Source: a virus
Virus record (IMG/VR): IMGVR_UViG_3300042294_002495
Location: 1-38,971 of that record
DNA: 38,971 bases
Reading direction: 5' to 3' (one strand)
Position 1 is the first letter of the stretch. Each line of letters begins with the position of its first letter. The notes beneath the pieces were generated by a model. That model searched no databases and had not been told where the DNA came from. It saw only the letters and a list, made by a program, of their open reading frames with translations. Positions 1 to 38,971 of this stretch are shown here, piece by piece. The position numbers were made by a program, and so were the translations under genes.

Positions 1-1967
1 AGATGCGCGTCCTGCGCGGCGAAACAGTGCTGACCCCGACCTTTTCGATTGCGGCCAAGACGCCGAACACCAGCTGGATCAGCATCGACAGCAGCGGGAA
101 TTACACCGTCACCGATCCGGGCGTTGACCTCGCGACGGCCACGCTGCGGGCGGTGAATGTTGGCGTGAATTACGACCGCACCTATACGCTGGCACGGTCG
201 AAGCAGGGCGTGACCGGCCCGAGGCTGCAACTGACGGTCGATAATCAGGCGTTTACCTTTACCGATGGCGCGGCCAACCCCGGCTCGCAGACGATTACGC
301 TTGAGGCGCTGCTGAATAACCTGAGCGGCACGGCCACATGGTCAACCTCGCCTTCGGTGACGCTGGGCGGCTCGGGCAACACGCGCACGCTTTCGGTCGC
401 CAACTTCGGCGCGAACCGGCAGGTGACGGTTACGGCCACGCTGGGCGGCATCACCGACAAGATCACGCTGGTGCGGGTGGATCGGGATGCTTTTGGGGGC
501 AACGCAAACCGCCTGCCCTTTACCCGGCTTGAAGGCGGGCGCGGTTGGCTCACCCTTGGCAACTTCACACCGACGCCGTTCCCGATTGCCTTTGACGGCC
601 TGACATTCATTGTTGCCGAGTGGACGGCAACAGCGGCAAACCAAGATGTGTACCTTTACAGCGCGCCGTCGATTTCAGTCACGGCGGGCGAGAGGCTTTC
701 GATTTCGTCGGTGATTGAAGTGCAATCGCTACTGGGTGCGCCCGCCCCTGCGGCGTGGCAGCTTTATGTGCAGTTTTTCGACAGTGCGCTTGGCTCGGCA
801 GGAAGCCCGCAGATTGCATCGGGCACCGGGAACGAGACTTCCTATGTGCGTCGTTCTGCTTTCATCACAGTGCCTGCAACGGCACGGGCCGCATCGCTGG
901 TTTTGCTGGTGCGCAGCGCAGGTGCTGGCGCGGTCAAGGGCAGCATTCTTCAGCCAATGGTCGCCAGCGCCACGGCTGACCAGACCACGCACCCTGCCTA
1001 TGTCCCCGGCCCGAATGCCAGCGACGGGGCTGACCCGAACAACATCATCACCATCGACGGAAGCGGCGTCATCAACGGCATCGGGACTGCGAGTATCAGC
1101 GTCGATAACCGCCGCAGCGCGCTTCAGGGGCTGCTTTCTGCGCGGCCTGCCTCGGGCCAGTTCATCGGGCAGGAATACCACGCAACCGACACGCGCGAGA
1201 TTTACCAGTGGGACGGCTCCAACTGGCGCACCTCGGCTGACATTACCGCCACCGCCCAGCGCAGCATTGAGCCGCAGTTCCCGAGCATCGAAATCAAGCA
1301 GGGCGAGGCAGGCCACACCGGCAACCGCACCGTGACGCATGTCGCCAAGCGCGGCACCGCTACGCTGACGGGCGGGACTTGGTCGCTGCCATCGTCGAAC
1401 CTTGGCGCAGGTTCGGCAAGCATCAGTTCCAGCACCGGCACGGTGACGCTTTCGGGCATCGTCCAGTCGGGTGCCTATGCCGTGCGCTACACGCACACCG
1501 ATAGCCTCGCGACCGACCTGGCGGTGAATGTCACCTACGTCCCGACGCCGGCTAGCGGGGTGGTTTCCGCCAAGACTGGCAACACGACTTCCAGTTCTGG
1601 TGTCGGCAACACGGGTGCATGGACGAACGTTATCACCTTGACGCTGACAGGCTGCCCCACTGGTCGATTGTTCTTCAACAACATTGGCCTGTCAGGTGGA
1701 AACCGGATTGATGTTTCGTCTGGGACTGGAACTTGTGACCATCAGGCCCGCGTCCAGATTAATGGCACAACGGTGGATACGTCTGCCTCGCAGAACACGG
1801 TTTCAGGCGGTGTCATTCAGTTGGTGGACTACTCAGACCTGTTCGATGCAGTTCATAGCGTTTCGTCTGGGACGGTCACGGTGACTGTGGACTTACAGAG
1901 AACGTCGGGCACCGGCACCATCAGCACCATGTCCAACTCGCTTGATGTCACCGTCATCGCAACCTGA
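1..1967 (+). CDS. Tail-tip/host-specificity protein, C-terminal half (continues from the gene at 36981)
   Basis: This is the C-terminal part (about residues 622-1276) of a J-like tail-tip protein. The reading frame at base 1 continues without a stop from the gene beginning at 36981 once the 127-base overlap is merged, so the ATG at position 3 is internal. The segment consists of beta-rich, Thr/Ser/Gly-rich modules. A short FIGQEYHATDTREIYQWDG-like patch (about nt 1160-1210) resembles the head-fibre and tail-fibre modules that often come before receptor-binding domains. The last ~250 residues have the composition of a receptor-binding tip. By family analogy it contacts the host surface. The lysis genes begin 10 bp downstream. 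The fold of the C-terminus is not recognised. Confidence 0.85.
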   Translation, partial: MRVLRGETVLTPTFSIAAKTPNTSWISIDSSGNYTVTDPGVDLATATLRAVNVGVNYDRTYTLARSKQGVTGPRLQLTVDNQAFTFTDGAANPGSQTITLEALLNNLSGTATWSTSPSVTLGGSGNTRTLSVANFGANRQVTVTATLGGITDKITLVRVDRDAFGGNANRLPFTRLEGGRGWLTLGNFTPTPFPIAFDGLTFIVAEWTATAANQDVYLYSAPSISVTAGERLSISSVIEVQSLLGAPAPAAWQLYVQFFDSALGSAGSPQIASGTGNETSYVRRSAFITVPATARAASLVLLVRSAGAGAVKGSILQPMVASATADQTTHPAYVPGPNASDGADPNNIITIDGSGVINGIGTASISVDNRRSALQGLLSARPASGQFIGQEYHATDTREIYQWDGSNWRTSADITATAQRSIEPQFPSIEIKQGEAGHTGNRTVTHVAKRGTATLTGGTWSLPSSNLGAGSASISSSTGTVTLSGIVQSGAYAVRYTHTDSLATDLAVNVTYVPTPASGVVSAKTGNTTSSSGVGNTGAWTNVITLTLTGCPTGRLFFNNIGLSGGNRIDVSSGTGTCDHQARVQINGTTVDTSASQNTVSGGVIQLVDYSDLFDAVHSVSSGTVTVTVDLQRTSGTGTISTMSNSLDVTVIAT

Positions 1968-11265: not shown

Positions 11266-11283
11266 TGTGTACTTGCGTACATC
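11266..11283 (+). repeat. Right copy of the 18-bp repeat flanking attP
   Basis: TGTGTACTTGCGTACATC, the partner of 11071-11088. It overlaps the last codons and stop of the integrase gene, as integrase arm sites commonly do. Confidence 0.6.
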
Positions 11284-12250
11284 AGAAGACGGTTGCGGCG
11301 CTGGCGTCGCGCATGAAGCTGGGGCTGTACCGGGCATAAACCTGCTCGGTCACGCGGGTCGAGGTGTGGCCCAGGTATTGCGAGATCATCTGCATCGGCA
11401 CGTTGTCCTGCGCCATCCAGACCGCGCAGGTGTGGCGCAGGACGTGAGGCGAGAAGGTGATGCCGGTGCGCTCGGCGAGGCGCTGGGTGGCCTTCTTCAC
11501 GCTGCCGACCGGCTTGCCCCCATACTCCACGACATGATCGCTTAAACGGGCCTTGTACGCCTCGGAAAGCGCCTCTCTGGCAACGGCATTCATCGGCACC
11601 ACTGTGCGCCGCTTGTTCGTCTGGTTGCGTCCTGTGGGCCTGTAATCGACCGACCCCGCTGCGAAGTCCACCCGATCCCATGTGAGGTCTAGGATTGCTC
11701 CCGCCCGCGCGCCCGTGGACAGGCCGAGGATCAGGAATAGCCTGATGTGCGGGGTGGTGGCTGCATCGACCAACTGGCGGGCCTGCTCCTTCGTCAGCCA
11801 GTGATCTCGCGGCTTTGATGCTGGCGGTATCCATAGCGACGGGGCGGCGCTGCCATAATGCTTGCGGATGCAGGCGCGCAACAGTTCGAGGTCAGTGCGG
11901 ATCGTGCTGTCGCTGTAACCCTTGGCGTTACGCTCTCGATAATAGGCGCGGCAATCTTCGCGGGTGATCGCGCTGCCGACGCGGTTGCCAAAGGTGGGGG
12001 CCAGCGCCGTCCAGTGGGCTTTGAACCTGTCTGCCCGCGCGCCGTCTTGTACGCGATCCCGTACATACTCGGGCCATAGATCGATCAACCGTTCGCTTCG
12101 CGCCGCGGTGAGGCGCTGCCAGATGGCGCGGGCGATCTGCTGGGCGTCCCGCTCATCATCCGTGCCAGTCGAGATTCGGCGGCGACGTTCACCGTCTGCG
12201 AAGGTGAGAGCCCATTTTCCCCTGTGTCTGGTGAGGGTGTAGTCTGACAC
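11282..12250 (-). CDS. int: Tyrosine recombinase integrase, 322 aa
   Basis: It catalyses site-specific integration at the tRNA-Val site. The catalytic set is visible: R182 in STGARAGA, H269-x-x-R272 in SPHVLRHT, H295 in QYLGH and nucleophile Y305 in TEQVYARY. Residues ~55-140 resemble the SAM-like core-binding domain and 1-45 an arm-binding N-terminus. The start is GTG 12250, giving MSDYTLTRHRGKW. The gene overlaps the 3' end of the excisionase-like gene by 166 bp, an unusually long overlap. Its stop lies inside the right arm repeat, 54 bp from the tRNA-like core. Confidence 0.93.
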   Translation of the reverse strand: MSDYTLTRHRGKWALTFADGERRRRISTGTDDERDAQQIARAIWQRLTAARSERLIDLWPEYVRDRVQDGARADRFKAHWTALAPTFGNRVGSAITREDCRAYYRERNAKGYSDSTIRTDLELLRACIRKHYGSAAPSLWIPPASKPRDHWLTKEQARQLVDAATTPHIRLFLILGLSTGARAGAILDLTWDRVDFAAGSVDYRPTGRNQTNKRRTVVPMNAVAREALSEAYKARLSDHVVEYGGKPVGSVKKATQRLAERTGITFSPHVLRHTCAVWMAQDNVPMQMISQYLGHTSTRVTEQVYARYSPSFMRDASAATVF

Positions 12251-14279: not shown

Positions 14280-14446
14280 CACATCACCCCCTTCGCCCAA
14301 GCCCAGACGCCGCCGCCAATTGCCAGCCAGATGCACCCGCTGATGCAGAGCCAAATGCCGATGGCGCGGGCAGCGGTCATCTCGTCATCCTCGGGCGGTT
14401 CCGGCTCCATCAGGTCAAGCATGTGTTCAAACTCTTGGGGGGTCAT
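14279..14446 (-). CDS. Small membrane protein, 55 aa
   Basis: The start at 14446 overlaps the upstream stop (ATGA). An acidic helical N-terminus (MTPQEFEHMLDLMEPEPPED) is followed by one membrane segment IGIWLCISGCIWLAIGGGVW. An internal ATG would give a 33-aa product starting MTAARAIGIW, like the neighbouring 32-aa membrane protein. Function unknown. Confidence 0.5.
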   Translation of the reverse strand: MTPQEFEHMLDLMEPEPPEDDEMTAARAIGIWLCISGCIWLAIGGGVWAWAKGVM

Positions 14447-14853
14447 GCGTCCCACTCCCCTTGCACCTGCTCCGGCTCCATGCAGGTCACGCCGACGATT
14501 TCGCCGATGATCGTCGAGGGGGTAGCAAACTGCCATTCAGTGCCGCCGTGTGAGGTCGACTTGCCGCGTAGATCGAAGCGCTGTGTCTGGACTAAGCGAT
14601 AACCCTCGGCGGGGCAGTTGATCTCTAGCAGGATCATCTCGTGCGAGATGGTGCGGCTACGCTTGTGATCCACCCAGACCCAGACAAGTGCGCTGGTGCT
14701 GTCGGGGCGACCTGCCATCCAGTCTTTGTCACGAATCCAGTGGTCAAGCTCGGCGCTTTCGTCGATGCGGCTCCACCCTTCGGCGGGCGGTGCCTTGGCG
14801 GTGAGCGGCGCGGCAAGAGCTAGGGCGGCAGCGGCGGCGATGTAACGGATCAT
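14443..14853 (-). CDS. Secreted surface-adhesin-E-like protein, 136 aa
   Basis: The start at 14853 has a strong AGGAAGGGAA site and opens a signal peptide MIRYIAAAAALALAAPLTAK-A. An in-frame ATG at 14898, coupled to the upstream stop, would add 15 residues before it. The mature part has the spacing of the surface-adhesin protein E family: ALVWVWVDHKRSR, LLEINCPAEGYR and a final IGEIVGVTC, with two Cys likely disulphide-bonded. It should be periplasmic or outer-membrane associated. In a leftward prophage operon it may alter the host envelope, for example in superinfection exclusion (inference). Confidence 0.65.
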   Translation of the reverse strand: MIRYIAAAAALALAAPLTAKAPPAEGWSRIDESAELDHWIRDKDWMAGRPDSTSALVWVWVDHKRSRTISHEMILLEINCPAEGYRLVQTQRFDLRGKSTSHGGTEWQFATPSTIIGEIVGVTCMEPEQVQGEWDA

Positions 14854-14894
14854 CTTACTTCCCTTCCTGAAGGCGTCGGGTTCCATGGGGTCGG

Positions 14895-15314
14895 TCATGC
14901 TGCGGTCCTTTCGGGTTGCTCCGGCAGGCGAAAGGTTTCGGGGGTTGGCGGCCGTGCGCCGAAGGCTTCGGCAAGGCCCTGCAGATCCCAGGCGCGTTGC
15001 TGGCGGGCCAGATCGTCCGGGTGAGCGATGCTGCTGGCCAGCGCGATGTCGCGGGCGCGGGCCAGTTCGGCAAGCAGCTCGGGCGCGTCGGCGATGTCGA
15101 ACCACTGGATCAGCGTCTTGCCGCCGAGTGGGAAGATGGTCTGCAATTCGAGCTCAGGCAGGATCGCCCCGGCCTTAGCGGCGATGGCGAGCCAGAGGCG
15201 GGCGTTATCGTTCGCCGCGGCGGCCGAGACCGCCCCACCCTCGACCGCGCGGGCAAGCGCGGCGCGGCGGCGGGTGAGTTCGGCCTCTGCGATTTTGGCA
15301 AGGGTGGTGCTCAT
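14895..15314 (-). CDS. Hypothetical protein, 139 aa
   Basis: The protein is Ala-rich and helical (MSTTLAKIAEAELTRRRAAL, LLAELARARDIALASS) with a central ELQTIFPLGGKTLIQWFDIA patch. No family is recognised. ATGA overlaps with genes on both sides place it in the same operon. Confidence 0.6.
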   Translation of the reverse strand: MSTTLAKIAEAELTRRRAALARAVEGGAVSAAAANDNARLWLAIAAKAGAILPELELQTIFPLGGKTLIQWFDIADAPELLAELARARDIALASSIAHPDDLARQQRAWDLQGLAEAFGARPPTPETFRLPEQPERTAA

Positions 15315-16002: not shown

Positions 16003-16019
16003 GTTTGCATCATGCAAAC
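16003..16019. promoter_or_regulatory. Operator O1: perfect 17-bp palindrome
   Basis: GTTTGCAT-C-ATGCAAAC, a perfect 8+1+8 inverted repeat, 28 bp upstream of the 15975 start. Its centre is 35 bp from the centre of O2. It probably binds the phage repressor or Cro and controls the leftward operon. No clear -10/-35 pair could be assigned here. Confidence 0.8.
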
Positions 16020-16037: not shown

Positions 16038-16054
16038 GTTTGCCTGATGCAAAC
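16038..16054. promoter_or_regulatory. Operator O2
   Basis: GTTTGCCT-G-ATGCAAAC, 15 of 16 positions of the O1 consensus, in the 92-bp gap between the leftward operon start (15975) and the end of the HIRAN gene (16068). Confidence 0.78.
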
Positions 16055-16067
16055 CAGCCTTGCCCCT

Positions 16068-16574
16068 TTACTGTTCGCCCTCATCAGCTGCGAGCGGCGA
16101 TAGACCGCCTGATCCAGCAGGTGTTTCAGTATCAGCCGGGCCGATCACAGACCCGAGCAGGGCCAGTCCGACGAGCACCGCCATCCCGATCACAGCTACC
16201 TTGAGGCATCCTTCGGACTGCTGCTTCGGCGGGTGCGGGCGGGCGCCGTTTGGCGGCCTGTTGGGGGATCTCGCATCGGCAGCGGTGAGGACGGTAAGCA
16301 CGACACCGCGGCTCGGCTTTCCGGGTTTGCCGCCGATGATCGCCTCGATCTCGGCGCGAATCGCTGTCTTGCGATCGATCATAGCGGTGGCCAGCCAGCT
16401 ATCACGCTCGATGTAGCCGATGGTCGCGCCGCTTACGTCGGTGCAGCGCAGGGCGCGCGGATCATGGGGGTTGTCAGGTTCGTGCTGGATGGTGACAGGG
16501 TCGCCAGATGAGAGATTGGCGATGGCCGCCTGATAGTTTGACTCGCCGACCAGGTGGACCGTGTATCGCCCCAT
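16068..16574 (-). CDS. HIRAN-domain protein with C-terminal membrane anchor, 168 aa
   Basis: Residues 5-60 match the HIRAN fold by motif: HLVGESNYQAAI, SGDPVTIQHEPDNPHDPRAL and ATIGYIERD. HIRAN domains bind DNA ends or stalled-fork DNA in eukaryotic HLTF and occur alone or fused in bacteria and phages. A Pro-rich linker leads to one membrane helix at residues ~124-145 and a short acidic tail. It starts 6 bp after the repressor stop, so it should be expressed with the repressor in the lysogen. That, plus the membrane anchor, suggests an immunity or exclusion function (inference). Confidence 0.75.
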   Translation of the reverse strand: MGRYTVHLVGESNYQAAIANLSSGDPVTIQHEPDNPHDPRALRCTDVSGATIGYIERDSWLATAMIDRKTAIRAEIEAIIGGKPGKPSRGVVLTVLTAADARSPNRPPNGARPHPPKQQSEGCLKVAVIGMAVLVGLALLGSVIGPADTETPAGSGGLSPLAADEGEQ

Positions 16575-16580
16575 TCGCCC

Positions 16581-16946
16581 TTATCCCTTGCCAACCTTTG
16601 TCTGTTGGAAGGGTGGTAAGTCGTCCTCGTCTTGCTTGCCAGCAAATTTTGCTTGCCCATCAGAGACAAGGCGCAGGGCCTCGCGCTCGATCTCCTGCCG
16701 GTGGCGGATGATCTGGAAGGCGTCTTCGGGTGGCATCAGCAATTCGTAAGGTTGGCGCTTCAACGCGACGGCGGCCGATTTCAGCAGATCGACATTCATG
16801 TCCTGCTGGCAATTGTAAAGCAGGCTGGCGGTGGTTTTGGACCAGCCCGCCTCGCGCACCATGTCGGCCTGACGGACGCCAAGCGCATCCATCCATTCCT
16901 TGAGGAACCACGTCACTTGCATCGTGGGGCGGGATCGCTTTGCCAT
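16581..16946 (-). CDS. CI-like lysogeny repressor, short HTH type, 121 aa
   Basis: Residues ~15-70 form an XRE-type HTH: VRQADMVREAGWSKTTASLL with the following VDLLKSAAVALKRQPYELL. The C-terminus is charged, with no S24/LexA-type peptidase region, so RecA-stimulated self-cleavage is not expected. Start ATG 16946 is chosen because operator O3 begins at the next base; longer frames upstream would run through all operators. A TATTCT -10-like box ends 6 bp before the ATG, suggesting a leaderless mRNA. It is divergent from the Cro-like gene, the usual genetic-switch layout. Confidence 0.8.
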   Translation of the reverse strand: MAKRSRPTMQVTWFLKEWMDALGVRQADMVREAGWSKTTASLLYNCQQDMNVDLLKSAAVALKRQPYELLMPPEDAFQIIRHRQEIEREALRLVSDGQAKFAGKQDEDDLPPFQQTKVGKG

Positions 16947-16963
16947 GTTTGCAGAATACAAAC
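16947..16963. promoter_or_regulatory. Operator O3
   Basis: GTTTGCAG-A-ATACAAAC, 14 of 16 positions of the O1 consensus, touching the repressor start codon and covering its -10-like box. Binding here should block the repressor promoter. Centre-to-centre distance to O4 is 34 bp. Confidence 0.7.
16953..16958 (-). promoter_or_regulatory. Putative -10 box of the repressor promoter
   Basis: TATTCT on the minus strand, ending 6 bp before the repressor ATG. A transcription start would fall at or next to the A of the ATG, as for leaderless repressor messages. No convincing -35 hexamer is visible, so an activator may be needed. Confidence 0.45.
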
Positions 16964-16980: not shown

Positions 16981-16997
16981 TTACGCACCTTGCAAAC
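16981..16997. promoter_or_regulatory. Operator O4 (degenerate)
   Basis: TTACGCAC-C-TTGCAAAC: one good half site (7 of 8) and one poor half. It is listed because it falls midway between O3 and O5 with 34-35 bp centre spacing. Confidence 0.5.
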
Positions 16998-17015: not shown

Positions 17016-17032
17016 GTTTGCAATGTGCAAAC
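17016..17032. promoter_or_regulatory. Operator O5 at the Cro-like promoter
   Basis: GTTTGCAA-T-GTGCAAAC, 14 of 16 consensus positions. A TTGTCA -35-like hexamer (17006-17011) precedes it, and the -10 region would overlap its right half, 8 bp before the ATG at 17041. Binding should repress the rightward unit. Confidence 0.7.
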
Positions 17033-17040
17033 TAGGCTGC

Positions 17041-17325
17041 ATGGAAGCCCCACTCACCATTGAAGCGCTGCGCCGCGAACTTGGCCTTAACCAGGCCGAA
17101 TTTGCGTTGCGCATCGGCCTTGCCAATAAGGCGTCGGTTTCGCTGCTCGAGCGCGGCGGGCCTTGCTCGCTCCCGGTCGCGCTGGCGATCGAGGCGCTTT
17201 CCAACGGTCGCATCGATGCGTGCGCGTTGAACGAGGATGTTAGGGCAGCGCGTCATGGAGTGGTGATTACCTCGGCGATGCCTGCCCCGTCTGCGGGAAA
17301 GATCGACGGGGTTTCCCGCGCATGA
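17041..17325 (+). CDS. Cro-like HTH regulator, 94 aa
   Basis: The N-terminal 55 residues form an XRE-like HTH: LTIEALRRELGLNQAEFALR, IGLANKASVSLLERGG, then LPVALAIEALSNGRID. First gene of the rightward unit, divergent from the repressor. Start 17041 is chosen (MEAPLTIEAL); an in-frame ATG at 17023 lies inside operator O5. There is no clear ribosome-binding site, so the mRNA may be leaderless. The stop overlaps the next start (ATGA). By position it is Cro-like; the DNA-binding target is inferred. Confidence 0.75.
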   Translation: MEAPLTIEALRRELGLNQAEFALRIGLANKASVSLLERGGPCSLPVALAIEALSNGRIDACALNEDVRAARHGVVITSAMPAPSAGKIDGVSRA

Positions 17326-17798
17326 TCCGGCGCGGCTTTATCAAGCTCGCCGTGATCCGCGCGATTAAGCATGTCGGCGGGATTGACCGCGCGGCGCGGG
17401 TTGCGGGAGTTTCGACTTCGCAGGCCGGGCGCTGGAACAATCGTAACGACATCGATCTGCCGACGCTCGAACACATGGTCGAACTGGACGAGGCCGCGCT
17501 GGCTTGCGGTGGTTCGGCAGAAATTCTGGCGACTTTCGCGGCCGAGCTGGGGCACGTCGCGATTCCGCTGCCCGATGTGGCCGGATCGCAGGCCAACCTC
17601 GCGTTGCAGTGGGCCGGGGTCACTGCCGAGTTTGGTGACGTGGCGCGGACGCTGATGGCGGCGCTGGCTGACGACCGGATCGACAATCGCGAGGCTGGCG
17701 CGCTGGCGCACGACATCGATCAGGCGGTGGCCGCACTGGTGACGATGCGCGCTTTGGTGATCGAGGAAGAGCGCGACGCTGTTCGCGCGGTGAAATAG
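17322..17798 (+). CDS. CII-like phage regulatory protein, 158 aa
   Basis: The N-terminal HTH-like region (RAIKHVGGIDRAARVAGVST, then SQAGRWNN) is followed by helical repeats with the ending FGDVARTLMAALADDRIDNR, EAGALAHDIDQAVAALVTM. This is the pattern of the 'phage regulatory CII' family of alphaproteobacterial and P2-like phages. It probably activates lysogeny promoters. Second in the rightward early unit, coupled to the Cro-like gene. Confidence 0.7.
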   Translation: MIRRGFIKLAVIRAIKHVGGIDRAARVAGVSTSQAGRWNNRNDIDLPTLEHMVELDEAALACGGSAEILATFAAELGHVAIPLPDVAGSQANLALQWAGVTAEFGDVARTLMAALADDRIDNREAGALAHDIDQAVAALVTMRALVIEEERDAVRAVK

Positions 17799-36980: not shown

Positions 36981-38971
36981 ATGGCTAAGGTTCTGCGCGT
37001 CGTCGGGCAGGTCGCGGGCGTTGTCGCCACCATCGCGGCCTTCATTCCCGGCGGGCAAGGCGTCGCGGCGATTGCCTCTGCGGTGGCGGTTGTCAGCAGC
37101 GTCGGCGCGCAGGCTGTCGCGAAGCCTCCCGTGGCTCGAGGCCAGATCACCGAGCGCATCATCGGTGCGAACAACCCCCTGCCCTATCTGATGGGGCGAA
37201 GTTACAGCGGCGGCGTTCAGGTCCACGATGTCGGCTATGGCGGCGAGGTCAGCGATGTTGACAATCCGTATCGCTTCGTCGCGGTTGTCCATTCGTGTGC
37301 GGGGCCGGTCGATGCGATCGAGAGCACGCAGGCCAACTTCGCCACCGTGTCATTCTCTGGATCGGCGGCGGTTGGATACTACAACGACTACTGGTGGCGC
37401 GACACCCAGCTGGGCGCGCGGCCGGAGAGCGATGCGCTGACCCCGCAATTCTCCGGCACGCCGCGCTGGGGCACGTCTTTCAAGCTCTCGGGCTTTTGCG
37501 CGGTTGGCCATAGTTTCAAGTGGTCGAAGAAGGGCAAGCGGTTCGCTGGCGGGCAGTTGCCGATCCTTGGCGAAATCGTTCGCGGGGTGAAGGTTTATGA
37601 TCCGCGGCTCGACAGCACCTATCCCGGCGGATCGGGCGCGCACCGCATCAATAACGAGGCGACCTGGACGTATTCGCGCAACCCTGCCCTTCACGCGCTG
37701 ACCTATTCCTACGGCCGCTATGTCAACGGCGTGAAGGTGTTCGGCGTTGATCTGGGCGCGGCCTCGATTGACATTTCCAGCGCGGTTGCGTGGGCGAACG
37801 TCTGCGATGCGAATGGCTGGAATTGCGACGGCACGATCTACGAGCCGGGGAACAAGTGGGAAAACCTGAAGCGGATCTGTCAGGCCGGCGGCGCGCAGCC
37901 GGTGCTGGTTGGCGGGGTGCTGCGGTTCGATTATCAGGCACCGCGCACCGCGCTGGCGACGATCACCCGCGACGATCTTGGCAGCGGGCCCTTGCGTGAC
38001 AGCCTGGGGCGTGGCTGGAAAGAGCGGCACAATACCATCGTGCCGCGCTATCGCTCGGCCAATCACCAGTGGGAGTTCGTGCAAAGCGAAGCGGTGACCG
38101 TGACAGATTTTGTCACCGAGGACGGCGAAATCAAGCGCGACGAAATCCAGTATGATCTTGTCACCGACAAGGATCAGGCGGCCGAGCTGGCGGTCTATGA
38201 GTTGTATCAGCGCCGCGAATTGGGGCCGATCAGCCTTCCTTTGAAGCCGCATTTCCGCGGCTATGATCCCGGCGACTGCTTCACGCTTTCCTCCGACCTT
38301 TCGCCCACTGGCTCTTCGATCAAAGTCGTGATGCGCTCGCGCTCGATCGAACTCTCCTCGGGCGTAGTCAACTGCACTTTCGAGACCGAAAACGACACCA
38401 AGCACGTCGATGCTTTGGGGACGCTTGGCACCGAGCCGACATCGTTCACCTTTCCGACTGCCGAGGAACTGGACGACACGGCCGCGATAAACACCAGCGC
38501 GGCGAATACGATCTACTCCGATGGCGTGACCTCTGTTGAGGAACTGCGCCCCGGTGAGGCAGGCTCGACCCGCAACGTCCCGCGCGGCACCTATGCGGCA
38601 GGCACGACCTATGTGCGCGGCGATAGCGTTATCTTCTCGGGTTCGTCCTATCAGTTGATTGTGGCGAGCAGCACCGGCAATGCGCCGCCTGATGTGGCGC
38701 GGTGGGCCTTGCTGGCGAATGCGGGCAGCGGGCCTGCGGGCGCGGACGGGTTGCCCGGTCTGACCGTGATTGTGAGCAACGAAGCGCACGTTGTCGCCAC
38801 GGCTGCGGACGGCTCGGGCGGCGATTACACTGGCGCGGGCGGGCAGATGCGCGTCCTGCGCGGCGAAACAGTGCTGACCCCGACCTTTTCGATTGCGGCC
38901 AAGACGCCGAACACCAGCTGGATCAGCATCGACAGCAGCGGGAATTACACCGTCACCGATCCGGGCGTTGA
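36981..38971 (+). CDS. Tail-tip/host-specificity protein (J-like), N-terminal part; continues at position 1
   Basis: No stop occurs through the window end and the frame matches position 1-1967, giving one 1276-residue protein. A hydrophobic N-terminus (VVGQVAGVVATIAAFIPGGQ) is followed by GRGQIT-like VARGQITERIIGANNPLPYL. The phage tip domain includes VKVYDPRLDSTYPGG and TWTYSRNPALHALTYSYGRY, typical of J-like proteins. Residues ~535-575 form a CBM5/12-like module (YAAGTTYVRGDSVIFSGSSY, W at the end), then a short collagen-like GPAGADGLPG hinge before the C-terminal receptor region. It determines host range. Confidence 0.9.
   Translation, partial: MAKVLRVVGQVAGVVATIAAFIPGGQGVAAIASAVAVVSSVGAQAVAKPPVARGQITERIIGANNPLPYLMGRSYSGGVQVHDVGYGGEVSDVDNPYRFVAVVHSCAGPVDAIESTQANFATVSFSGSAAVGYYNDYWWRDTQLGARPESDALTPQFSGTPRWGTSFKLSGFCAVGHSFKWSKKGKRFAGGQLPILGEIVRGVKVYDPRLDSTYPGGSGAHRINNEATWTYSRNPALHALTYSYGRYVNGVKVFGVDLGAASIDISSAVAWANVCDANGWNCDGTIYEPGNKWENLKRICQAGGAQPVLVGGVLRFDYQAPRTALATITRDDLGSGPLRDSLGRGWKERHNTIVPRYRSANHQWEFVQSEAVTVTDFVTEDGEIKRDEIQYDLVTDKDQAAELAVYELYQRRELGPISLPLKPHFRGYDPGDCFTLSSDLSPTGSSIKVVMRSRSIELSSGVVNCTFETENDTKHVDALGTLGTEPTSFTFPTAEELDDTAAINTSAANTIYSDGVTSVEELRPGEAGSTRNVPRGTYAAGTTYVRGDSVIFSGSSYQLIVASSTGNAPPDVARWALLANAGSGPAGADGLPGLTVIVSNEAHVVATAADGSGGDYTGAGGQMRVLRGETVLTPTFSIAAKTPNTSWISIDSSGNYTVTDPGV
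38845..38971 (+). repeat. 127-bp repeat of bases 1-127 (circular assembly overlap)
   Basis: Bases 38845-38971 are identical to 1-127. The repeat lies inside one gene and keeps its frame. 127 is a common maximal k-mer size in short-read assembly, so it is most likely the overlap left by an assembler that closed a circle, not a biological terminal repeat. The non-redundant genome is 38,844 bp. Confidence 0.92.

What the first reader, a model, noticed from the sequence alone, without database searches (positions are those of the whole stretch)
16068..16946. Repressor operon with a membrane-anchored HIRAN protein: candidate prophage defence or exclusion pair
HIRAN domains recognise DNA ends or unusual DNA. 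Here the domain is tethered by a Pro-rich linker to one C-terminal membrane helix and expressed six bases after the repressor. A DNA-end sensor placed at the inner membrane of a lysogen could act on incoming phage DNA. I know of no described system with this architecture, but I cannot search.
Basis: partly seen in the sequence, partly recalled or inferred. Interest (0 to 1): 0.72.

Follow-up and report, generated by a model that had tools for sequence, protein, structure and literature searches.

The report
Membrane-tied DNA-end protein beside prophage repressor
A bacterial virus carries, directly behind the gene that keeps it dormant, a gene for a protein that joins a DNA-end-binding (HIRAN) domain to a membrane anchor; similar pairs recur in unrelated phages of several bacterial groups, sit where known phage-exclusion genes sit, and have a name in one case but no tested function.

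Summary
ORF 16068-16574(-) encodes a HIRAN domain (Pfam 40 bits; AlphaFold model pLDDT ~92 over residues 1-80; the top 17 PDB fold matches are all HIRAN), a Pro-rich linker and one predicted membrane helix. It starts 6 nt after a small CI-like repressor.

The pair sits in a lambda-like immunity region. Palindromic operators flank the two genes on both sides, so HIRAN occupies the rexAB position and is expected to be made in the lysogen. Two related phages keep the pair under purifying selection, but their protein also has a periplasmic C-terminal domain that the window's protein lacks. That domain is homologous to phage 186 Orf97, annotated 'expression from plasmid blocks 186 infection'.

Repressor-HIRAN pairs, often membrane-anchored, recur in unrelated temperate phages (Streptococcus, Staphylococcus, several IMG/VR families). 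[quoted passage not shown]

Best explanation: a lysogen-expressed exclusion or abortive-infection factor, working like RexAB, PdpSau or AbiP (0.5). Main rival: a modulator of prophage induction (0.27). Novelty: new variant of a known kind. No function has been shown experimentally here.

The parts
16068..16574 (-). HIRAN-linker-TM protein gene, 168 aa
   Evidence: PF08797 39.8 bits; AF2 and Foldseek HIRAN fold; dN/dS 0.17-0.24 over the shared length
16275..16574 (-). HIRAN domain, residues 1-100, predicted cytoplasmic
16200..16274 (-). Pro-rich, basic linker, residues 101-125
   Evidence: sequence; low pLDDT
16143..16199 (-). predicted transmembrane helix, residues 126-144, followed by a short acidic tail; relatives carry a further ~90-aa Orf97-like domain here
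   Evidence: hydropathy, charge asymmetry, conserved in relatives
16581..16946 (-). CI-like repressor, 121 aa, no S24 autocleavage domain found
   Evidence: HTH_26 E 0.0037, below cut-off; Pam1 CI 48%; start conserved in relatives
16003..16019 (.). left operator palindrome GTTTGCATCATGCAAAC
16038..16054 (.). left operator palindrome GTTTGCCTGATGCAAAC; overlaps a terminator-like hairpin (minus strand) after the HIRAN stop
   Evidence: conserved in L012, L013
16947..16963 (.). right operator palindrome abutting the repressor ATG
16981..16997 (.). weaker middle right-operator site (2 mismatches)
17016..17032 (.). right operator palindrome GTTTGCAATGTGCAAAC before the cro-like gene
17041..17325 (+). 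cro-like small HTH gene (divergent)
   Evidence: HTH_3 E 0.0011, below cut-off; PHROG 8
17322..17798 (+). CII-like regulator
   Evidence: PF06892 53.7 bits; PHROG 101
11282..12250 (-). integrase
   Evidence: PHROG 1 E 2.5e-49

Best explanation
The pair is the lysogen-expressed immunity unit of a lambda-like temperate phage whose host is probably a sphingomonad. The repressor gene and the HIRAN-TM gene are co-transcribed from the maintenance promoter. HIRAN-TM is an accessory exclusion or abortive-infection factor in the rexAB position. Its HIRAN domain is held on the cytoplasmic face of the inner membrane and binds exposed DNA ends or ssDNA of an infecting phage, or its replication intermediates. 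Through the membrane helix this blocks entry or replication, or disturbs the membrane, as RexA/RexB or the one-protein TM plus DNA-binding systems PdpSau and AbiP are reported to do. Shown by computation: HIRAN fold, conserved operon, operators on both sides, purifying selection, recurrence in unrelated phages. Predicted only: membrane anchoring and topology. Inferred: expression in the lysogen, DNA-end binding, action on incoming phage DNA, effector mechanism, host.
For: Lambda-like immunity layout with operators enclosing only the repressor and HIRAN genes, conserved in two related phages. The lambda rexA and rexB genes are transcribed with cI from PRM; RexA binds DNA and RexB is an inner-membrane protein (PMC11077077). 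In both relatives the same protein continues into a domain homologous to phage 186 Orf97 (E 5e-5), VHML ORF47 (2e-6) and Aeromonas phage LPM4 (2e-8). The 186 record states that Orf97 'expression from plasmid blocks 186 infection'. Repressor-HIRAN adjacency recurs: of 26 HIRAN clusters in IMG/VR, 7 lie directly behind a repressor-type gene (5 with HTH_3 or Arc over Pfam cut-off, 2 of the repressor family of this phage), with 1-2 weaker cases. Named phages with CI-HIRAN-integrase: 315.3, 11865, P954, and IPP28 with repressor-ImmA-HIRAN-TM-integrase. In S. thermophilus phages the comparable place holds the proven exclusion lipoprotein Ltp (PMC3952083). PdpSau, a prophage protein with one TM helix and an OB-like DNA-binding domain, causes abortive infection with membrane effects; AbiP has the same plan (PMC10127798). 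HIRAN sensing of invading phage DNA ends was already proposed for HipL and HipN (PMC8262856).
Against: No experiment exists for this protein or a close homologue. The window's copy lacks the Orf97-like domain, the only part with an infection phenotype in any homologue, and that phenotype is a one-line database note. The two aromatic residues that stack on DNA in HLTF (Y72, Y93; PMC4666394) align to N13 and H37, although N35 and D38 are invariant, so end binding is uncertain. PADLOC gives only domain-level hits to an unproven candidate (PDC-M03B). Many phage HIRAN proteins have no TM or no repressor neighbour.
Confidence: 0.5

Rival explanations
1. Switch modulator: HIRAN-TM senses DNA damage, ssDNA or replication state of the host and tunes repressor activity or prophage induction, independently of other phages.
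For: The repressor has no S24 autocleavage domain, so another input for induction is needed. In pneumococcal prophages the accessory lysogeny-module genes szaL and spaL modulate activation (PMC12637031), and thaL is named in the same kind of module. RexA biases the lambda switch (PMC11077077). 186 orf97 lies in the LexA-controlled operon with the anti-repressor tum.
Against: HIRAN partners also follow repressors that carry an S24 domain (L136, phage 11865) or have an ImmA-type protease (L116, IPP28), so it is not a general substitute for cleavage. A membrane anchor is not needed to sense damage of host DNA.
Confidence: 0.27
2. Guard against incoming single-stranded DNA: a membrane-tethered 3'-end binder captures transforming or conjugating ssDNA and so protects the prophage from curing by recombination.
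For: HLTF's HIRAN binds 3' DNA ends (title of a reference listed in PMC8262856). Membrane HIRAN genes are found in prophages of naturally transformable pneumococci, whose prophages are under selection against curing by transformation (PMC12637031).
Against: No effect of thaL on transformation was found in the passages read. Recurrence outside competent hosts is unexplained, and sphingomonad competence is not established.
Confidence: 0.08
3. Lysogenic-conversion gene with a host-directed role (stress, envelope, DNA repair) unrelated to phage competition.
For: TM-HIRAN proteins also occur in bacterial genomes, for example Sandarakinorhabdus (between metabolic genes) and Ancylobacter. The slot behind this repressor family carries varied cargo, including bPH-SHOCT, BRCT and WYL/TerB proteins.
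Against: Recurrent direct coupling to repressors across unrelated phages suggests a phage-centred role.
Confidence: 0.12
4. Decaying remnant: loss of the C-terminal effector domain left a non-functional stub in this phage.
For: The window's protein ends exactly where relatives enter the Orf97-like domain, and no relic of that domain is found elsewhere in the window.
Against: The HIRAN domain is under purifying selection (dN/dS 0.08 against L002) and the TM helix is conserved. HIRAN-TM proteins without that domain occur in other phages.
Confidence: 0.03

Closest known systems
[quoted passage not shown]
   Same: HIRAN domain plus transmembrane segment, encoded in the lysogeny module with a C1-type repressor
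   Different: Gram-positive host; not shown to be a homologue beyond HIRAN; no Orf97-like domain reported in the text read
HIRAN genes of S. pyogenes phage 315.3, S. pneumoniae 11865 and IPP28, S. aureus P954
   Same: Directly or nearly directly downstream of CI (or CI-ImmA), before the integrase; IPP28 has HIRAN followed by a C-terminal TM segment as here
   Different: 315.3 and P954 proteins have no clear TM; sequence similarity limited to HIRAN; different hosts
Lambda RexA/RexB
   Same: Same genetic position and operon; a DNA-binding function and a membrane function
   Different: Two proteins, unrelated folds, RexB has four predicted TM helices; here one chain with one TM
PdpSau (S. aureus prophages) and AbiP (Lactococcus)
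   Same: One TM helix plus a cytoplasmic DNA-binding-type domain in a single prophage or accessory protein
   Different: OB-like fold, N-terminal TM; pdpSau lies in the lysis region, not the immunity operon
Phage 186 Orf97
   Same: Homologous C-terminal domain in the two close relatives of this protein; hydrophobic N-terminal anchor; plasmid expression noted to block 186 infection
   Different: No HIRAN; in the SOS operon with tum; the window's own protein lacks this domain
HipL/HipN HIRAN proteins (PMC8262856)
   Same: HIRAN in mobile-element conflict genes; proposed to sense phage DNA ends
   Different: Coupled to a kinase toxin, not to a repressor; no membrane anchor described in the passages read

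Membership tests
HIRAN domain (PF08797) | Profile score above the curated cut-off | tested here: met
   39.8 bits against 24.7
HIRAN domain (PF08797) | HIRAN fold | tested here: met
   AF2 pLDDT ~92 over residues 1-80; 17 top PDB matches are HIRAN, TM-score on target up to 0.71
HIRAN domain (PF08797) | DNA-stacking residues known from HLTF (Y72, Y93) | tested here: inconclusive
   Align to N13 and H37; neighbouring N91 and D94 kept as N35 and D38
HIRAN domain (PF08797) | Binding of DNA ends | not testable with these tools
   Needs purified protein
ThaL-type transmembrane HIRAN lysogeny genes | HIRAN plus transmembrane segment in one protein | tested here: met
   TM from hydropathy only
ThaL-type transmembrane HIRAN lysogeny genes | Located in the lysogeny/immunity module beside the repressor | tested here: met
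   6 nt after the repressor, enclosed by operators
ThaL-type transmembrane HIRAN lysogeny genes | Common descent of the whole protein | not tested
   The phiRMV8 ThaL sequence itself was not compared; the Gram-positive proteins examined share only the HIRAN domain
RexAB exclusion system | Same transcript as the repressor, downstream of it, lambda-like order | tested here: met
   Layout and operators; the transcript itself is inferred
RexAB exclusion system | RexA/RexB homologues (two proteins; four-TM RexB) | tested here: not met
   Single HIRAN-TM chain; no RexA/RexB family matched. It may work like Rex but is not a member
Orf97-like exclusion proteins | C-terminal DPDSF...NGFGG domain | tested here: not met
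   Present in L002 and L013, absent from the window
PADLOC PDC-M03 candidate defence system | PDC-M03A partner and full-length PDC-M03B | tested here: not met
   Only the HIRAN part of PDC-M03B matches, E 6e-7; no partner matched among the six proteins scanned

The most novel reading that the evidence does not exclude
Temperate phages of several bacterial phyla have repeatedly coupled their repressor gene to a membrane-tethered DNA-end or damage-recognition domain, forming a convergent class of single-chain, Rex-like guards at the inner membrane. The variants are HIRAN with C-terminal TM (window, L104, IPP28), N-terminal TM with HIRAN (L106, L133, phage 11865), and TM with BRCT behind the same repressor family (L072). 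Some carry a periplasmic Orf97-type effector domain.
Probability: 0.28. Interest if true: 0.8.

Novelty: new variant of a known kind. Interest (0 to 1): 0.52.

Why it matters
If the membrane HIRAN protein excludes phages, it would be a one-gene counterpart of RexAB and would give a role to bacterial HIRAN domains, which so far are mostly annotated by analogy to eukaryotic fork-remodelling proteins. The survey gives a ready set of natural variants (TM at either end, HIRAN or BRCT, with or without the Orf97-like domain) for direct tests. It also links HIRAN-TM to phage 186 Orf97, whose reported block on infection appears as a one-line database note.

Tried and rejected
Close homologues in GenBank phages: none beyond the HIRAN domain. 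Plasmid HIRAN hits in sphingomonads (L005-L007) are HIRAN-only or fused to other regions, and none is directly repressor-coupled on the same strand. One genome-contig scan gave four HIRAN relatives, among them N-terminal TM-HIRAN proteins, but no full-length relative. A sample of 385 alphaproteobacterial genomes gave TM-HIRAN and TM-Orf97-domain proteins separately but no fusion. The first AlphaFold job (L013 full length, 3 rows) was too uncertain to say anything about the C-terminal domain; that domain has no sequence match in the PDB and no Pfam family. The idea that HIRAN replaces repressor autocleavage was weakened by HIRAN partners of S24 repressors. A link between TM and repressor adjacency is not robust (Fisher p 0.16 strict, 0.02 lenient). 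The background rate for genes behind a repressor was assumed (3-10%), not measured; at 5% seven of 26 gives p 2e-4, at 10% p 0.01. A search for papers on orf97 of phage 186 found none.

Full report
What is in the sequence. The window is a 38,971-base IMG/VR virus record whose first and last 127 bases are identical, as expected of a complete, circularly assembled phage genome. It encodes an integrase, large terminase, primase, major head protein and tape-measure protein. At 16581-16946(-) lies a 121-aa CI-like repressor, and 6 nt further at 16068-16574(-) a 168-aa protein. Pfam assigns residues 2-82 of the latter to HIRAN (PF08797, 39.8 bits, cut-off 24.7). An AlphaFold2 model built on 25 HIRAN sequences from the window and fetched loci has pLDDT around 92 over residues 1-80 and drops to ~55 beyond residue 100. 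Foldseek's 17 best PDB matches are all HIRAN structures: HLTF with and without DNA, and Lactobacillus lp_0118. Residues 101-125 are Pro-rich and basic. Residues 126-144 form one hydrophobic stretch (Kyte-Doolittle 2.66) with 5 K/R before it and none after it, predicting HIRAN inside and the tail outside. The helix is not confirmed by the structure model.

Regulatory setting. A palindrome TTTGCA-N3-TGCAAA occurs at 16003-16019 and 16038-16054 on one side of the pair and at 16947-16963, ~16981-16997 (weak) and 17016-17032 on the other, about 35 nt apart within each group. With up to two mismatches the window has six matches, five of them here, against 1.4 expected. Most of these sites recur at the same places in two related phages. 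Divergent to the repressor lie a cro-like gene (HTH_3 below cut-off) and a CII-like gene (PF06892). A terminator-like hairpin overlapping the left operator follows the HIRAN stop. This is the lambda immunity layout, with the HIRAN gene where lambda has rexA and rexB. I infer, but did not show, that repressor and HIRAN share the maintenance transcript and are the genes expressed in the lysogen.

Relatives. Two other IMG/VR phages (L002/L012 = 3300034072_001363; L013 = 3300035703_000226) carry the same pair 5-6 nt apart. dN/dS is 0.08-0.18 for HIRAN and 0.13-0.20 for the repressor, so the gene is real and constrained. In both relatives the protein is ~90 aa longer and ends in a domain with DPDSFEH...YRARNGFGG. 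The window's copy stops exactly where that domain would begin, and no relic is found elsewhere in the window. The domain has no Pfam family but matches Aeromonas phage LPM4 (E 2e-8), Vibrio phage VHML ORF47 (2e-6) and phage 186 Orf97 (5e-5). These proteins have hydrophobic N-terminal segments, one behind a zinc-ribbon-like N terminus. The GenBank record of phage 186 annotates Orf97 with 'expression from plasmid blocks 186 infection'. That links the longer relatives to exclusion; for the window's shorter protein the link is indirect.

The slot behind this repressor. A scan with the repressor profile found 43 relatives in IMG/VR. Behind the repressor they carry varied cargo: an independent HIRAN protein overlapping the repressor gene (L074, repressor ~40% identical; its HIRAN is slightly below Pfam's cut-off); an N-terminal TM plus BRCT protein 7 nt behind the repressor (L072; PF12738 28 bits, cut-off 22); bPH-SHOCT proteins (L063, L081); WYL/TerB (L061); lipoprotein-like and small TM proteins. 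Pam1 has an unrelated protein with an N-terminal hydrophobic segment overlapping the repressor gene. The slot is an accessory-gene site, and HIRAN has entered it more than once.

Recurrence elsewhere. A scan for HIRAN in IMG/VR (pattern EPDN[PK]HD, confirmed by tblastn) gave 58 loci in 26 clusters. Directly upstream on the same strand, L123, L124, L133 and L136 have HTH_3 repressors over Pfam's cut-off (L136 with Peptidase_S24), L151 an Arc-type protein, and L140 and L150 repressors of this phage's family. L115 has a sub-threshold HTH and L116 an ImmA-like M78 protease. Nine clusters have a hydrophobic anchor, at the C-terminal side of HIRAN (L115, L117, L161, L150) or the N-terminal side (L123, L133, L143, L151, L139); HIRAN is over cut-off in all of them (and L150). 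L143 combines TM, HIRAN and BRCT. Seven of 26 is unlikely at an assumed 5% background (p 2e-4; 10% gives 0.01); the background itself was not measured. In named phages the order CI-HIRAN-integrase is annotated for S. pyogenes 315.3 and S. pneumoniae 11865, CI-orf-HIRAN-...-integrase for S. aureus P954, and repressor-ImmA-like-HIRAN with C-terminal TM-integrase for IPP28. N-terminal TM-HIRAN proteins also occur in bacterial genomes (Sandarakinorhabdus, Ancylobacter and others).

What is already known. [quoted passage not shown] it is mentioned once and I found no test of it. The same paper shows that other accessory genes of such modules, szaL and spaL, modulate prophage activation. PMC8262856 proposed that HIRAN domains of Hip kinase systems sense invading phage DNA ends. 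RexA is a DNA-binding protein and RexB an inner-membrane protein, both made from the repressor transcript; together they exclude T4rII, and RexA also biases the lambda switch (PMC11077077). A RexAB-type system downstream of a CI-like repressor protects P. putida (PMC12894663). Ltp of S. thermophilus TP-J34 is a lysogeny-module lipoprotein that blocks DNA injection (PMC3952083). PdpSau, one TM helix plus an OB-like DNA-binding domain, causes abortive infection with membrane effects and resembles AbiP (PMC10127798).

Interpretation. The best-supported mechanism is a lysogen-expressed exclusion or abortive-infection factor that senses DNA ends at the inner membrane (0.5). The strongest rival is a modulator of induction (0.27), motivated by the repressor's lack of a cleavage domain and by SzaL/SpaL. 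It is weakened by HIRAN partners of repressors that already have S24 or ImmA. Whether this HIRAN domain binds DNA ends is open: the HLTF stacking residues Y72 and Y93 (PMC4666394) align to N13 and H37, while N35 and D38 of the EPDNPHD motif are invariant among 25 sequences. It may work like RexAB but is not a member, since it has neither RexA nor RexB homology. It fits the ThaL kind by architecture and position, but common descent beyond HIRAN was not tested. The sphingomonad host is an inference from the best cellular matches.

Verdict. Observation confirmed; interpretation partly supported; novelty claim reduced because the architecture has a name in one prophage. What is new is the alphaproteobacterial lambda-like example with mapped operators, the HIRAN-TM-Orf97-domain fusion in its relatives, and the recurrence of repressor-coupled, membrane-anchored HIRAN (and BRCT) proteins in unrelated phages.

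Noticed in passing
L072 5344-6036 (IMGVR_UViG_3300036790_000525): Seven nt behind a repressor of the same family lies a 231-aa protein with an N-terminal TM helix and a C-terminal BRCT domain: a second DNA-end/damage-type domain tethered to the membrane in the same slot.
   Followed up: partly
L143 2551-3621 / L109 4542-5612 (IMGVR_UViG_2834949002_000003): One protein combines an N-terminal TM helix, HIRAN and BRCT (both over Pfam cut-off); the neighbour upstream is a secreted-looking protein, not a repressor.
   Followed up: partly
L060 5376-5795 (IMGVR_UViG_3300011526_000008): Behind a related repressor lies a lipoprotein-like 140-aa protein with a DPDSAKF...NAKNSFGGY stretch that resembles the Orf97-type domain of L002/L013.
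   Followed up: partly
L063 5305-5826 and L081 5312-5770: Bacterial PH-like (bPH_3 / DUF4429) plus SHOCT proteins overlap the repressor gene in two related phages: another recurrent cargo type of this slot.
   Followed up: no
L031 1309-2040 (phage 186 orf97): The GenBank note says plasmid expression of Orf97 blocks 186 infection; a paper search for it found nothing. Homologous domains occur in several P2-like phages and on plasmids.
   Followed up: partly
L154-L170, L172: Sixteen near-identical 110-aa HIRAN genes, mostly in isolate-derived prophages, often near one contig end and without a repressor neighbour; role unknown.
   Followed up: no
L149 1540-3204: 554-aa phage-encoded HipA-like protein with a HIRAN match, preceded by an exonuclease-like gene: resembles the HipL type (judged by eye).
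   Followed up: no
window 14443-14898 (-): 151-aa protein with a signal-peptide-like stretch near its N terminus in the leftward early operon; no PHROG or PADLOC match.
   Followed up: no
window 1-127 and 38845-38971: Identical 127-base terminal repeat, consistent with a complete circularly assembled phage genome.
   Followed up: yes
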